Assembly: GCF_003319115.1 (NCBI RefSeq)
Contig: NZ_QOHF01000005.1
Location: 1-64,000, forward strand
DNA: 64,000 nt
Direction: 5' to 3'
DNA from: Geodermatophilus sp. TF02-6
GTDB taxonomy: Bacteria > Actinomycetota > Actinomycetes > Mycobacteriales > Geodermatophilaceae
Shown: in pieces, positions 124-16,758 of the stretch
Numbering within the stretch: the first letter of the stretch is position 1
Layout of the letters: each line of letters begins with the position of its first letter
Program-made: the position numbers and the translations under genes
Notes under the pieces: generated by a model
What the model was told of the DNA's origin: nothing
Seen by the model: only the letters and a program-made list of their open reading frames with translations
The model's database searches: none

Positions 124-810
124 CTAGCCGACGGGTGCGAATCGGGCGCGCAGCCCCTCGACCAGGAGGTCCAGGCCGAACTCGAAGGTCGCGGTGTGCG
201 GCAGCCGCACCAGGTCGGTGATCGCCGACAGCAGCAGCGGCTGGTCGGCCAGCGCCCGCTGCCGCCGGGCCGCCTCCCGCCCGTCGTGGGCGACCGGCGT
301 CGGTGCGGTGCGGCTGCGCTCGGCCTCCGCCTGCCACTCGGTCGCGGCGCCGATGACGTACGAGCCGATCGTGAACAGGACCCGCTGGGCGTCGACCGGG
401 CGCAGGCCGGCCCCGACCAGCACCGCCAGCGAGCGCTCCAGCTGGGCGAAGCTGTCCCGGCTCGGCCGGTTGCCCGCGAGCACCCGCGGGGCGTCCCGGG
501 TCGCGACCAGCGCGGAGAACATGCGGGTGGCGTCGTCGCGCAGCCACTCCCACCACGGCTGGTCCGGCGCCGGGCCGGCGTGGTCGACGCCCGCCCGGCG
601 CAGCAGCTCCTCGGCCATGAGGTCCATGAGCTGGCGCTTGTTGTCCACGTGCCAGTACAGCGTCGGCCCGGCGACGCCGAGGCGGGCGGCGACCCGCCGG
701 AACGACACCGCCTCCAGGCCGCCCTCGGCGAGCAGGGCGAGCGCGGCGTCCACGACCGCCGCGCGGGTCACCCGGGTCCGTTCCGCCGCCGCCGCGCCCG
801 TCACCGTCAC
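124..810 (-). CDS. TetR/AcrR-family transcriptional repressor of the adjacent ABC exporter
   Basis: A 228-residue regulator. An N-terminal helix-turn-helix (about residues 15-60) ends in the typical LYWHVDNKRQL segment, and a TetR-type C-terminal ligand domain follows. The GTG at 810 was chosen because a TAGAGT box (818-823, minus strand) ends seven bases upstream, the usual spacing for a leaderless actinobacterial transcript; longer versions would run into the divergent exporter gene. It is transcribed away from the DrrA-like ATPase gene and shares a palindromic operator with it. By analogy with family members it probably represses the exporter until a toxic ligand binds. The ligand cannot be read from the sequence. 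Confidence 0.85.
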   Translation of the reverse strand: MTVTGAAAAERTRVTRAAVVDAALALLAEGGLEAVSFRRVAARLGVAGPTLYWHVDNKRQLMDLMAEELLRRAGVDHAGPAPDQPWWEWLRDDATRMFSALVATRDAPRVLAGNRPSRDSFAQLERSLAVLVGAGLRPVDAQRVLFTIGSYVIGAATEWQAEAERSRTAPTPVAHDGREAARRQRALADQPLLLSAITDLVRLPHTATFEFGLDLLVEGLRARFAPVG

Positions 811-818
811 GCTTGACA

Positions 819-835
819 CTCTAACGGTGTTAGAG
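819..835. promoter_or_regulatory. Palindromic TetR operator in the divergent promoter
   Basis: A perfect 7-bp inverted repeat CTCTAAC/GTTAGAG is separated by GGT. A consensus-like TTGACA lies at 813-818 and the TetR gene's own -10 box (818-823, minus strand) overlaps the palindrome, so a bound repressor would block both directions. The arms resemble operators known for drug-exporter TetR repressors. Confidence 0.75.
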
Positions 836-847
836 AAGCCTTGTCCC

Positions 848-1843
848 GTGCCGTACACCGGGACAGGACCGGCGATCGAGGTCGCCGGGCTGACCAAGAG
901 CTATCCGAACGGCTCCACCGTGGTAGAGGCGGTCAAGGGCATCGACCTGCGCGTCGAGGCCGGCCAGACCTACGGCTTCCTCGGGCCCAACGGCGCGGGC
1001 AAGTCGACGACCATCGAGATGCTGTGCACCATCCGCAACCCCACCTCGGGCACCGCGCGGGTCGCCGGGTACGACGTCGTCCGCCAGCGGGAGGAGGTGC
1101 GCCGGCGGATCGGCCTGGTCTTCCAGCAGCAGACGCTCGACCTGCAGCTGTCCGCCGAGCAGAACCTGCGCTTCCACGCCGAGCTCTACGGGCTCTCCCG
1201 GGCCGAGGCCGAGCGCCGCATCGCCGAGGTGCTCGACATGGTCGCGCTCGCCGACCGCCGTCGCGACACGGTGGCCAAGTTCTCCGGCGGCATGAAGCGC
1301 CGACTGGAGATCGCCCGCGGCCTCGTGCACGCCCCGCAGGTGCTCTTCCTCGACGAGCCCACCATCGGGCTGGACCCGCAGACCCGCGCCGCCATCTGGG
1401 ACTACCTCCACCAACTGCGCCGCACGACGGAGATCACCGTCTTCGTCACCACGCACTACATGGACGAGGCCGAGCACTGCGACCGCATCGCGATCATGGA
1501 CCACGGCGAGATCGTCGTCGAGGACACCCCGGAGGCGCTGAAGTCCAGCGTCGGCACCGACCGGATCGCGCTGCGCACCGACGACGACGAGCTGGCGATC
1601 GCCCGCGTGCGCGAACGACTCGGCATCGAGGCCGGCGTCCACGAAGGGCAGGTGACCCTGGCGGCGGCGGACGGCGCGCAGGTCGTCCCCCGGCTGTTCA
1701 CCGAGCTCGACGTGGGCATCCGGTCGGTCACCGTCACCCGGCCCAGCCTCGACGACGTCTTCCTGACCTACACCGGCCGCACCATCCGCGACTCCGAGGG
1801 TCCGCAGCACACGCGCACGCCCCCGTTCGCCGGGAGGCGATGA
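848..1843 (+). CDS. ABC exporter ATP-binding subunit, DrrA-like (daunorubicin-resistance family)
   Basis: A 331-residue cytoplasmic ATPase that would power the membrane subunit encoded next. Visible motifs are Walker A GPNGAGKST (about residue 45), signature FSGGMKRRLEIARG (about 140), Walker B VLFLDEPTIGLDP and a switch histidine in TTHYMDEAE. The C-terminal extension ending VTRPSLDDVFLTYTGR is typical of DrrA and supplies contacts to DrrB. The GTG at 848 was chosen; an in-frame TTG at 841 is possible. The stop at 1841-1843 falls in the first unit of a 27-bp tandem array that separates it from the permease gene. Drug efflux is the family role; the substrate is unknown. Confidence 0.9.
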   Translation: MPYTGTGPAIEVAGLTKSYPNGSTVVEAVKGIDLRVEAGQTYGFLGPNGAGKSTTIEMLCTIRNPTSGTARVAGYDVVRQREEVRRRIGLVFQQQTLDLQLSAEQNLRFHAELYGLSRAEAERRIAEVLDMVALADRRRDTVAKFSGGMKRRLEIARGLVHAPQVLFLDEPTIGLDPQTRAAIWDYLHQLRRTTEITVFVTTHYMDEAEHCDRIAIMDHGEIVVEDTPEALKSSVGTDRIALRTDDDELAIARVRERLGIEAGVHEGQVTLAAADGAQVVPRLFTELDVGIRSVTVTRPSLDDVFLTYTGRTIRDSEGPQHTRTPPFAGRR

Positions 1844-2052
1844 CGTGGCCGGCTCCGCCGGGAGCGATGACGTGGCCGGCTCCGCCGGGAGCGATGACGT
1901 GGCCGGCTGCGCCGGGAGCGATGACGTGGCCGGCTGCGCCGGGAGCGATGACGTGGCCGGCTGCGCCGGGAGCGATGACGTGGCCGGCTGCGCCGGGAGC
2001 GATGACGTGGCCGGCTCCGCCGGGAGCGATGACATGACCGGCTGCGCCGGAG
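1837..2052 (+). repeat. 27-bp tandem repeat array (8 units) between ABC ATPase and permease genes
   Basis: Eight head-to-tail 27-bp units begin at 1837. The first seven differ only by a C/G change (GGCTCCGCC or GGCTGCGCC); the eighth is degenerate. Each unit carries GGGA shortly before an ATGA, which is a weak ribosome site plus overlapping stop and start. The length is a multiple of three, so copy-number change never shifts frame. One frame reads as repeats of VAGSAGSDD, another as MTWPAPPGA, and the exporter frame stops once per unit. Confidence 0.95.
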
Positions 2053-2066
2053 AGGACCAGACATGA
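1845..2066 (+). CDS. Possible repeat-encoded small ORF coupling ATPase and permease translation
   Basis: A 73-codon frame from a GTG at 1845 runs the length of the tandem array as about seven copies of VAGSAGSDD and stops at 2064-2066, overlapping the permease ATG (2063) as ATGA. It begins one base after the ATPase stop. Whether it yields a stable peptide is unknown; it may only carry ribosomes from the ATPase cistron to the permease cistron. The composition is entirely that of the repeat and no domain is recognisable. Confidence 0.3.
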   Translation: MAGSAGSDDVAGSAGSDDVAGCAGSDDVAGCAGSDDVAGCAGSDDVAGCAGSDDVAGSAGSDDMTGCAGEDQT

Positions 2067-2953
2067 CCATCCGCGACACCGCCCGCGAAACCGCCGTCCC
2101 GCCCGCCCCGGCGCGCGGCCGGCTGCCCGAGGTCCGCAGCGACCTGGCGCACGAGCTGCGCGCCACCTGGGTCGTCACGCGGCGGGAGCTGCTGCGCTTC
2201 AAGCAGGACCGGGCCCGCATGGTGACGATGCTGCTGCAGCCGATCCTGTTCGTCTTCGTGATGGGCACCGGGCTGGGCAGCATCGTCGACACCGGCGGCG
2301 GCACCAGCTTCCGCACCTTCCTCTTCCCCGGCGTGCTGGCCACGTCGGTGCTGTTCACCGCCGCGTTCGCCGGGATCTCCCTGGTGTGGGACCGCGAGTT
2401 CGGGTTCCTCCGCGAGATGATGGTCGCCCCCATCTCGCGCGCCTCGATCATCTGGGGCAAGTGCCTGGGCGGCGCCGTCGTCGCCACCGGGCAGAGCCTG
2501 GTCCTGCTGGCCCTGGCCGGCACCGTCGGCATCCCCTACGACCCGGTGCTGCTGCTGGAGCTGATCGGCTGCCTGTTCCTCGGCGCGATGCTGCTCACCG
2601 CCCTGGGCGTGCTGCTGTCCACCCGCATCTCCAGCATCCAGACGGCGATGCCGGTCAGCCAGCTGCTGATCATGCCGATGATGTTCCTGTCGGGCTCGCT
2701 GTTCCCCATCTCGGGACTGCCCGGCTGGCTGGCGGTCCTGACCCGGCTCAACCCGCTCACCTACGTCGTCCAGCCGATGCGCCACCTCACCCTCGACCAC
2801 CTGGACCTGTCGGCCGCCGAGCGTGAGCGGCTGCTGCCGGTCGTCACGTGGTTCGGCTGGCCGGTGCCGGTCGGCGTGCAGCTGCTCGCCGTCGCCGTCA
2901 TCACCCTCGGCCTGGTCACCCTGGCGGCGCGGGTCTTCCGGACGACGGAGTAG
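2063..2953 (+). CDS. ABC-2 type exporter permease, DrrB-like
   Basis: A 296-residue membrane protein. A basic cytoplasmic N-terminus (to about residue 55) precedes six predicted membrane spans, including LLQPILFVFVMGTGLG, LFPGVLATSVLFTAAFAG, the ABC-2 segment around GKCLGGAVVATGQSLVLLALAG, and a last span VQLLAVAVITLGLVTLAARVF. It pairs with the upstream DrrA-like ATPase and is probably regulated by the divergent TetR protein. The ATG at 2063 overlaps the stop of the repeat-encoded frame. An intergenic hairpin of the recurrent GC-rich family follows the stop. Confidence 0.9.
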   Translation: MTIRDTARETAVPPAPARGRLPEVRSDLAHELRATWVVTRRELLRFKQDRARMVTMLLQPILFVFVMGTGLGSIVDTGGGTSFRTFLFPGVLATSVLFTAAFAGISLVWDREFGFLREMMVAPISRASIIWGKCLGGAVVATGQSLVLLALAGTVGIPYDPVLLLELIGCLFLGAMLLTALGVLLSTRISSIQTAMPVSQLLIMPMMFLSGSLFPISGLPGWLAVLTRLNPLTYVVQPMRHLTLDHLDLSAAERERLLPVVTWFGWPVPVGVQLLAVAVITLGLVTLAARVFRTTE

Positions 2954-2956
2954 TAC

Positions 2957-3031
2957 GAGGACCCCGTCCCGAGGCTCGGCCCCGTCCGGGCACCGACCCG
3001 AGCCTGCGAGGGGTGGGGGGACGGGGTCCTC
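2957..3031. repeat. GC-rich intergenic hairpin element, copy A (terminator-like)
   Basis: The outer arms GAGGACCCCGTCC and GGACGGGGTCCTC pair perfectly over 13 bp. The centre holds the family core GAGCCTGCGAGGGGTGGGGGG. It follows the exporter stop codon and probably acts as a terminator, although no U-tract is present. Confidence 0.8.
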
Positions 3032-3044
3032 ACCGGGGTCTCAC

Positions 3045-3050
3045 TAGGGT
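3045..3050 (+). promoter_or_regulatory. Likely -10 box for leaderless mftE transcript
   Basis: TAGGGT stands seven bases before the GTG at 3058. This TANNNT-N7-start geometry recurs at many genes in the window and fits leaderless transcription. Confidence 0.5.
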
Positions 3051-3057
3051 GGGGCCG

Positions 3058-3783
3058 GTGAGCTCGCTGGCGGGTGCCGTCTGGCCCGACCTGACCGGAC
3101 GCCCACTGCTGCTGGTCCCCCTCGGCGCGGTCGAGCAGCACGGACACCACCTGCCGCTGGGCACCGACACCACCGTGGCCTGCGCCGTCGCCGAGGCCGC
3201 CGTCGACGTCCTGGACAGCAGGGTCCCGGACGGCAGGGTCCCGGACGGCGTGCTGCTGGCCCCGGCGCTGGCCTACGGCGCCAGCGGCGAGCACGAGGAC
3301 TTCCCCGGCACCGTCTCGATCGGCACCGACGCGCTGACCGGCCTGCTGGTCGAGTACGGCCGCTCGGCCTGCCGCTGGGCCGACCGGCTGGTGCTGGTCA
3401 ACGGGCACGGCGGCAACCTCGACGCCCTGCGCACGGCCGGTGCGTGCCTGCGCGCCGAGGGGCGGGAGGTCGCCTGGTTCCCCTGCGGGGTCGCCGGCGC
3501 CGACGCGCACGCCGGGCGCACCGAGACCTCCCTGGCGTTGCACGTGGAACCGACGCTCGTCCGCTCCGACCGGGCGGTCGCCGGGGAGACCACACCGATC
3601 GCCGGCCTGCTGCCCCGGCTGCGCGCCGAGGGGGTGCGCGCGGTCAGCCCCACCGGCGTGCTCGGCGACCCGACCGGCGCCTCGGCCGAGGAGGGGGCCG
3701 AGCTGCTGGCCGGGATGGCGCAGCGGCTGGCCGACGCCGTCCTGGCGTGGGACGTCGACCCCGCCGGCCGGCTGCGGGGTTGA
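3058..3783 (+). CDS. mftE: Mycofactocin maturation peptidase MftE (creatininase family)
   Basis: A 241-residue metalloprotein of the creatininase fold. Metal-ligand and active-site segments are visible: VEQHGHHLPLGTDT near the start, GASGEHEDFPGTVS in the middle and NGHGGN after that. In the mycofactocin pathway MftE trims the modified precursor peptide down to the Val-Tyr-derived core. The MftE call rests mainly on the next gene, mftF; alone it could be any creatininase-family amidase. The GTG at 3058 was chosen because a TAGGGT box lies seven bases upstream; an in-frame GTG at 3049 is the alternative. mftA-mftD are not in the window. Confidence 0.8.
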   Translation: MSSLAGAVWPDLTGRPLLLVPLGAVEQHGHHLPLGTDTTVACAVAEAAVDVLDSRVPDGRVPDGVLLAPALAYGASGEHEDFPGTVSIGTDALTGLLVEYGRSACRWADRLVLVNGHGGNLDALRTAGACLRAEGREVAWFPCGVAGADAHAGRTETSLALHVEPTLVRSDRAVAGETTPIAGLLPRLRAEGVRAVSPTGVLGDPTGASAEEGAELLAGMAQRLADAVLAWDVDPAGRLRG

Positions 3784-15842: not shown

Positions 15843-15877
15843 AGGCACCTGGCCGTGGTGCCGTCCGTAGGACGGCC

Positions 15878-15939
15878 ATGTCATCGCGGTGCGATCCGGA
15901 GGATCGCGATGTCATCGCGGTGCGATCCGGAGGATCGCG
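15878..15939. repeat. Two 31-bp direct repeats with internal palindromes
   Basis: Two identical 31-bp units (15878-15908 and 15909-15939) each contain the palindrome GCGATCC-GGA-GGATCGC. They lie between convergent genes, immediately before the stop of the minus-strand gene, and could act as a bidirectional terminator or as a mobile palindromic repeat. Confidence 0.8.
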
Positions 15940-15942
15940 GTG

Positions 15943-16758
15943 TCACGGCCGCAGGGAGATCGTCTCGCCGCGCACCACCGGGCGGATCTCGCCCGGGGCC
16001 CGGCGCTCGGCCACCTCGCGGACGAAGTCGCCCAGCGGGGAGGCGAACCGGTCGTAGTCGTCGAAGTGCACCGGCACGGTCACCGGCGGCTTGAGCAGCT
16101 CGACCAGGTCGGCGCCCTGCCGGCCGTCCATGGTGACCGTGACACCGAGGGCCTTGGTGCCGCCCAGGTGCGGGATGAGGACGTCGAGGGGACCGCAACG
16201 CTGCAGTACCTCGCCCAGCCACGGCCGGAAGATCGTGTCGCCGCTGACGTAGCCCCGCCACGACACCTCGCCGTCCCGGACCAGCTCCAGGACGCTGCCC
16301 ATCACCGGCGGCAGCAGCTTGGCCATGGGGCCGGGCCCGTGCACGCCCGGCACCGAGGTGATCCGCAGCGTCTCGCCCTCCCGGCTCATCTCGTGCCGCT
16401 GCCAGGGGGTGAGGTCGAGGGTCTCCCGGAACCCGCGCCGGTCGAGCGCCTTGGCCGCGGCCCGGGTGGTCACCACCGGGGTGTCCCGATCGAGGGTGCG
16501 GGTGGCGATGCGGTCCCAGTGGTCGGCGTGGAGGTGCGACAGCACGATCGCGTCGAGCGTCGGCAGCTGGGTGGGCTGCAGCGCGGGCTCGGTGAGCCGC
16601 TTGGCCCACAGCCCCTTGCCGAGGTAGGCCCGCTGACCGCGGTGCAGGAAGTTCGGGTCGGTGAGCAGGGTGAACCCGCCGATCCGCAGCAGCATGGTGG
16701 CGTTCCCGCCGAAGGTGAGGGTGACGTCGTCGGCGGGGGACGGCGGGGACGAGGGCAT
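15943..16758 (-). CDS. Metallo-beta-lactamase-fold hydrolase (UlaG/NAPE-PLD-like)
   Basis: A 271-residue protein with the two-metal motif LSHLHADHWD (about residue 75), a preceding FGGNATMLL strand, a later VPGVHGPG and a SGDTIF aspartate, and a final VPVHFDDYDRF histidine. This arrangement matches UlaG-like or NAPE-PLD-like hydrolases acting on lactones or phosphodiesters. The ATG at 16758 was chosen; a longer frame from about 16794 would run into a palindromic element. It is divergent from tldD. Substrate unknown. Confidence 0.75.
   Translation of the reverse strand: MPSSPPSPADDVTLTFGGNATMLLRIGGFTLLTDPNFLHRGQRAYLGKGLWAKRLTEPALQPTQLPTLDAIVLSHLHADHWDRIATRTLDRDTPVVTTRAAAKALDRRGFRETLDLTPWQRHEMSREGETLRITSVPGVHGPGPMAKLLPPVMGSVLELVRDGEVSWRGYVSGDTIFRPWLGEVLQRCGPLDVLIPHLGGTKALGVTVTMDGRQGADLVELLKPPVTVPVHFDDYDRFASPLGDFVREVAERRAPGEIRPVVRGETISLRP

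What the first reader, a model, noticed from the sequence alone, without database searches (positions are those of the whole stretch)
1837..2066. Eight-unit 27-bp minisatellite built from stop/start signals inside an ABC exporter operon
The array separates the ATPase and permease genes that normally join by a short overlap. Each unit carries a purine-rich site and ATGA, stops the ATPase frame, and leaves one frame open across the whole array into the permease ATG (ATGA). Because 27 is a multiple of three, copy-number change would alter coupling distance but not frame, a possible tuner of the ATPase:permease ratio. I know of no described system of this kind.
Basis: partly seen in the sequence, partly recalled or inferred. 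Interest (0 to 1): 0.75.

Follow-up and report, generated by a model that had tools for sequence, protein, structure and literature searches.

The report
Minisatellite grown inside a translational relay
In a soil actinobacterium the short joint between two genes of a drug-type exporter has been copied eight times in tandem, stop and start signals included, in a way that should still let ribosomes pass from the first gene to the second; it resembles known mycobacterial repeats and is more likely a tolerated expansion than a proven tuning device.

Summary
The array is real: 1828-2050, one 28-bp and seven 27-bp units plus a partial one (TRF score 402; best of 50 Markov resamples 88). It separates a DrrA-like ATPase (848-1843) from an ABC-2 permease (2063-2953). 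All ten forward-frame stops of the spacer sit in ATGA. One frame (GTG 1845 to TGA 2066, 73 codons) ends on the permease ATG; the second ends at ATGA 2034 and hands over to the first. None of 15 close orthologs has this array; in 13 the two genes abut. One, Geodermatophilus sp. LHW52908, has a single-unit version: a 10-codon leader ORF overlapping the permease start at GTGA. The array is best read as local amplification of the junction (ribosome site, stop, restart) inside such a leader. Stop-to-start spacing stays -4 at any copy number, so the anatomy predicts buffering, not tuning. "No described system" is wrong: mycobacterial MIRUs carry ORFs coupled at -4, and the rnc-fpg1 repeat has length linked to expression. 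The unit occurs at one place in 112 family genomes, so it is not a dispersed MIRU-type family. Copy-number variation and translation could not be tested.

The parts
124..810 (-). divergent TetR-family regulator gene (TetR_N + TetR_C_1); start approximate
   Evidence: Pfam PF00440, PF02909; home-made gene call
848..1843 (+). ABC exporter ATPase gene, DrrA-like, GTG start, TGA 1841-1843
   Evidence: TIGR01188 above cut-off, PF00005 and PF13732; tblastn orthologs
1828..2050 (+). tandem array: one 28-bp and seven 27-bp units plus a partial unit
1832..1837 (+). GGGAGG, ribosome-binding-like site at the ATPase 3' end, 7 nt before GTG 1845; present in 12 of 15 close orthologs at this place and copied as GGGAG in each later unit
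1845..2066 (+). through-running relay ORF (frame C), GTG start 1 nt after the ATPase TGA, 73 codons, TGA overlapping the permease ATG
1840..2037 (+). second open frame (frame B), ATG overlapping the ATPase TGA, ends at ATGA 2034-2037
2034..2066 (+). proposed ancestral leader ORF MTGCAGEDQT, counterpart of the leader MTRSAGEDAP in Geodermatophilus sp. LHW52908 (L005)
2049..2056 (+). GGAGAGGA, ribosome-binding-like site of the permease, 6 nt before ATG 2063
   Evidence: read from the sequence
2063..2953 (+). ABC-2 type permease gene, DrrB-like
   Evidence: PF01061, PF12698; TIGR01247 below its cut-off

Best explanation
A locus-specific minisatellite arose by tandem duplication (slippage between the near-repeats CGCCGGGAGG and CGCCGGAGAGG, 28 bp apart in the single-unit relative) of a coupled gene junction: the ATPase's last codons, its ribosome-binding-like site, its TGA and the restart codon beside it. 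It grew inside a short leader ORF that already relayed ribosomes from ATPase to permease. A ribosome that ends on the ATPase TGA restarts at GTG 1845 (or at ATG 1840), translates the array, ends on a TGA that overlaps the next start, and is delivered to the permease ATG at -4. Spacing stays -4 whatever the copy number, so the array is tolerated: it is buffered rather than tuned. Shown: anatomy, frames, single-unit relative, absence from the other close orthologs searched. Inferred: the order of events, the slippage, actual translation and coupling, and the neutrality of copy number.
For: Relatives: in 13 of the 15 orthologs L002-L016 a permease start lies -1 to +6 from the first base of the ATPase stop; L005 has the leader; in L012 the genes overlap and no start was resolved. 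TTCGCCGGGAGGCGMTGA ends the ATPase in 11 of 15 (L012 has one difference; L009-L011 differ more) (seven of these aligned), and the unit begins with it. L005 has TGA-C-ATG, a 10-codon ORF and GTGA at the permease, aligned to the window's last unit (90% over 41 bases, G019). All 10 forward-frame stops from the ATPase stop to the permease start lie in ATGA; frame B hands over to C at 2034, and C to the permease at 2063. The through-running frame C is the most coding-like of the three forward frames (0.01 per codon against -0.39 and -0.46), though far below the genes (0.48, 0.60). A second, independent expansion at the same junction in Modestobacter excelsi (L010: 15 bp x 4.2, start codon repeated) suggests the site is prone to this. 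Review: coupling is best at -4 to +3 and falls with spacing, and a -4-coupled ORF in a MIRU probably lets it insert with little effect.
Against: Only one relative (1 of 15) has the leader, and the tree does not place it next to the window (L005 groups with L002, support 95/90; the backbone is unresolved), so common ancestry of the leader is not shown by phylogeny. GTG 1845 is a weaker start than ATG 1840 (general knowledge). The permease has its own ribosome-binding-like site and might start independently. The codon score of frame C is near zero. No translation data. No second strain. Only one event supports frame-keeping (about 1 in 3 by chance).
Confidence: 0.6

Rival explanations
1. Uncoupling spacer: the permease starts on its own ribosome-binding site (GGAGAGGA) and the array is an inert, untranslated or poorly translated spacer that merely interrupts or weakens coupling.
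For: Own ribosome-binding-like site 6 nt before ATG 2063. The review reports coupling 3- to 10-fold lower at about +40 nt in early studies and little or none beyond 30 nt in another; the gap here is 219 nt.
Against: All stops are in ATGA and two frames lead to the permease; the leader with GTGA in L005 points to a relay. One study in the same review saw coupling fall only gradually from +50 to +350 nt, so even an untranslated gap need not abolish it.
Confidence: 0.22
2. Copy-number tuner: unit number sets the ATPase:permease ratio and varies within populations.
For: Near-identical units favour slippage (general knowledge); published precedent of repeat length linked to expression at rnc-fpg1 in M. 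tuberculosis (abstract and passages).
Against: Spacing at the permease stays -4 in the through-running frame; none of the 15 close orthologs has an array of this unit; no variation could be looked for here.
Confidence: 0.1
3. The 73-codon frame encodes a functional repeat peptide.
For: Open, with start and ribosome-binding-like site; weak Collagen match below the Pfam cut-off (21.8 against 27.2 bits).
Against: Low complexity, no Pfam family above its cut-off (no other library was tried for it), codon score near zero, only 10 codons in the one relative that has it.
Confidence: 0.03
4. The array carries an internal promoter or an RNA structure that controls the permease.
For: Published: the senX3-regX3 intergenic MIRU region drives regX3 on its own (passages).
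Against: No sigma-70-like site in 760-3060 (other promoter types not covered); folding no better than shuffles (z -0.09 for 1820-2085; -1.26 to +1.36 for five short pieces, one of them from L005).
Confidence: 0.05

Closest known systems
MIRU, mycobacterial interspersed repetitive units (e.g. senX3-regX3 intergenic region)
   Same: Tandem repeats in an operon spacer whose ORF is coupled to the next gene at -4 (NTGA); a relay ORF thought to soften the insertion (review PMC12548453, passages and section 11 read; PMC4213456, passages read).
   Different: MIRUs are 40-100 bp and scattered over 41 sites in H37Rv (PMC2734929, passages read); here the unit is 27 bp, at one locus, and derived from the junction itself.
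rnc-fpg1 tandem repeat (ETR-F / VNTR3239) of the M. tuberculosis complex
   Same: A junction of 1-6 bases in most of the other species compared (20-54 in M. avium and M. leprae) holds repeats (279-358 bp spacer) in one lineage; a 63-aa ORF has been predicted inside, doubted by the authors (PMC2734929, section 16 and passages read).
   Different: Complex set of 37-, 26-, 18- and 16-bp repeats; length linked to expression and polymorphic there; neither tested here.
TAACTGA repeats of Beggiatoaceae
   Same: Tandem repeats with stop codons close upstream of start codons, suggested translational role (PMC4679880, passages read).
   Different: 7-bp unit, many loci, stops in all three frames; no relay ORF mentioned in the passages seen.
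Short upstream ORF delivering ribosomes by translational coupling
   Same: A short ORF ending on the next start (PMC12548453, section 11 read).
   Different: Here the delivering ORF consists of repeated copies of the junction.

Membership tests
MIRU | Unit of about 40-100 bp | tested here: not met
   27 bp
MIRU | Dispersed at many loci | tested here: not met
   Unit pattern with up to 3 mismatches: 7 hits, all in this array, in 1 of 112 family genomes; one match in its own genome with the whole array
MIRU | Internal ORF overlapping the neighbouring gene's start at -4 (NTGA) | tested here: met
   TGA 2064-2066 overlaps ATG 2063; actual coupling not tested
VNTR (variable-number tandem repeat) | Copy number differs between strains | not testable with these tools
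   One genome per species is held; only between-species comparison was possible
DrrAB-type ABC exporter | ATPase matches the DrrA model above its cut-off | tested here: met
   TIGR01188 344.8 bits, cut-off 312.45
DrrAB-type ABC exporter | Permease matches the DrrB model above its cut-off | tested here: not met
   TIGR01247 175.7 bits, cut-off 223.05; ABC2_membrane above cut-off

The most novel reading that the evidence does not exclude
A self-buffering relay array: since every forward-frame stop in the spacer overlaps a start (ATGA) and the frames hand over A to B to C to the permease, any ribosome leaving the ATPase is delivered at -4 whatever the number of units. The minisatellite could then grow and shrink freely, and the dwell time or yield per unit could still fine-tune the subunit ratio. 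This would be a de novo, non-mobile counterpart of the MIRU strategy.
Probability: 0.25. Interest if true: 0.55.

Novelty: new variant of a known kind. Interest (0 to 1): 0.36.

Why it matters
It shows a probable route by which repeats can enter a tightly coupled operon junction without breaking it: by copying the junction's own stop/restart signals. With a single-unit relative, an array-bearing genome and an independent expansion in Modestobacter, it offers a small natural series for testing whether stop-start spacing, rather than gene distance, governs coupling in a high-G+C bacterium.

Tried and rejected
Dispersed palindrome: the unit contains CCGGC-TSC-GCCGG. With the whole array as query, 47 of 112 family genomes have a match at E 0.001 or better; apart from the window's own the best are G094 (4.5e-12) and G019, the single-unit junction (9.0e-8). 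Of the hits I read (six loci) several share that core, for example a 27-bp x 3.8 array between an aldolase gene and the next gene in G094 (L115). Against a family: outside the array the window has no copy with a TSC/GSA loop (8 of its 14 palindromes of this form are in the array), the unit itself is found nowhere else, and matching over several units selects arrays of equal period. Not fully excluded: in 75 other loci (294,643 bases) this loop class makes up 7 of 26 such palindromes, but that set includes loci fetched for their likeness to the array. I judged it not a family.

RNA hairpins hiding the ribosome sites: possible on paper (GCTCC/GGAGC), but folding energies are no better than shuffles.

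Multiples of three as a sign of selection: in 793,814 bases sampled (window, 20 stretches of G000, 20 of four relatives), 56 arrays passed (at least 3 copies or score 150). Of 14 in same-strand spacers 7 had a period divisible by three; of 32 called coding, 31 (on the TRF run). So there is no clear frame selection in spacers. Among 68 ATPase-permease junctions (67 of the 70 loci, plus the window; L033, L065 and L067 gave no ATPase match and were dropped), arrays of at least 3 copies, unit 9 bp or more and score 50 or more occur in 3 (window 27, L010 15, L047 18), all divisible by three; too few, and the latter two may lie inside permease coding sequence.

The first home-made gene caller trained on long antisense ORFs and called this operon on the wrong strand; its context classes were discarded and the caller reseeded with the ABC orthologs. 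That caller remains rough.

Paper searches showed me, in their listings, no report of this locus or of arrays in Geodermatophilus junctions; the listings were capped (15 of 322; 20 of 23; 10 of 20). Most subscription papers, including Supply et al. 1997, are not held and are known here only as cited.

Full report
What is there. TRF gives 27 bp x 8.2 at 1828-2050, 96% matches, score 402, the best of the window; the best score in 50 second-order Markov resamples was 88. The units are one of 28 bp and seven of 27 bp, then a partial one. The units from 1856 to 1991 differ from each other only at one site, CTC/CTG; the last full unit (2018) has ATGACATGACC where the others have ATGACGTGGCC. The whole array has one match in its own genome.

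The genes. 848-1843 is an ABC ATPase above the cut-off of the DrrA model; 2063-2953 is an ABC-2 permease, related to DrrB but below that model's cut-off. A TetR-family gene is divergent and a creatininase-family gene follows. The closest relatives of the permease with a name are Geodermatophilus, Blastococcus and Modestobacter.

Frames. The ATPase frame has 8 stops, one per unit (the first is the ATPase's own), each inside ATGA. Frame B (ATG 1840) ends at TGA 2035-2037, inside ATGA 2034. Frame C (GTG 1845, one base after the ATPase stop and 7 nt after GGGAGG) ends at TGA 2064-2066, inside ATGA 2063, the permease start. All ten stops are thus in ATGA and the frames hand over A to B to C to permease. 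An open frame through a 27-bp unit is not surprising in itself; what carries weight is where it ends and that a relative shares this.

Relatives. Of 112 family genomes 16, the window's own included, have a permease match at E 1e-100 or better; the unit, with up to 3 mismatches, is found in 1 of 112, at this locus only. Of the 15 orthologs of 80-86% identity held as loci from the genome collection (L002-L016; some are the same genomes as those), none has this array; in 13 a permease start lies -1 to +6 from the first base of the ATPase stop, in L005 a leader intervenes, and in L012 the genes overlap and no start was resolved. The ATPase ends with TTCGCCGGGAGGCGMTGA in 11 of 15. L005, Geodermatophilus sp. 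LHW52908, reads TGA-C-ATG, 10 codons (MTRSAGEDAP), then GTGA with GTG as permease start; the window's last unit reads MTGCAGEDQT, then ATGA. From ATPase stop to a fixed permease position L005 has 138 nt and the window 339: seven units (189) plus 12. The tree leaves the backbone open and groups L005 with L002, not with the window, so a shared origin of the leader rests on sequence similarity alone.

Second case. In Modestobacter excelsi (L010) the same junction holds 15 bp x 4.2, repeating the start codon in frame (MSTDP MSTDP VSTDP MGTDS); M. altitudinis (L011) does not have it. In all, 3 of 68 junctions examined have an array of at least 3 copies by the criteria used.

Background. In 793,814 sampled bases (TRF run) the array scores highest except for three repeats of about 90 bp at contig starts (438-446). 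Same-strand spacers do not clearly favour periods divisible by three (7 of 14).

How it probably works. The review puts coupling at its best at -4 to +3, 3- to 10-fold lower at about +40 in early studies, with little or none beyond 30 nt in one study but a slow decline from +50 to +350 in another (PMC12548453, section 6 read). An untranslated 219-nt gap would therefore be expected to weaken coupling; a translated relay keeps it at -4. Hence copy number should matter little, the opposite of a distance tuner. [quoted passage not shown] Against this, a published repeat between rnc and fpg1 has length linked to expression (PMC2734929, abstract and passages; section 16), so a graded effect is not excluded. 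Translation, coupling and copy-number variation are untested here.

Verdict. It looks as if it works like a MIRU relay but it is not a MIRU: unit length and dispersal were tested and not met.

Noticed in passing
window 15850-15945: A palindromic dispersed element, TGGCCGNGGTGNNGTCCGNAGGACNNCNNTGTCA, found in 24 of 26 genomes of the genus with up to 2 mismatches and with no hit of the reversed control in any of the 26; in the matches listed its arms change together (CGGTCC/GGACCG, TCGTCC/GGACGA, CCGTCC/GGACGG, CGATCC/GGATCG; a few do not pair). In the window it overlaps a tandem repeat (31 bp x 2.9) between converging gene ends.
   Followed up: partly
L145:1-237, L147:1-219, L150:1-220 (contig starts of the window's genome): Tandem repeats of about 90 bp at three of the 20 contig starts sampled; the assembly probably breaks at them. 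A match of the palindromic element lies at the end of the one in L147.
   Followed up: partly
window 3000 (+), 15809 (+), 23717 (-): A shared motif GAGCNTGCGAGGGGTGGG, one copy downstream of the permease within an inverted-repeat-like stretch (read by eye); 4 copies in 329,814 sampled bases of the genome and 1 in 400,000 of relatives.
   Followed up: partly
L115:1497-1597: In another family genome (G094) a 27-bp x 3.8 array with the same GGCCGGCTCCGCCGGG core lies between an aldolase gene and the next gene.
   Followed up: partly
L010:2429-2488: Modestobacter excelsi: 15-bp repeat multiplies the permease start codon at the same operon junction.
   Followed up: partly
L047, bases 80-182 of the junction stretch: Solirubrobacterales MAG: 18/36-bp repeats in a long ATPase-permease junction.
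   Followed up: no
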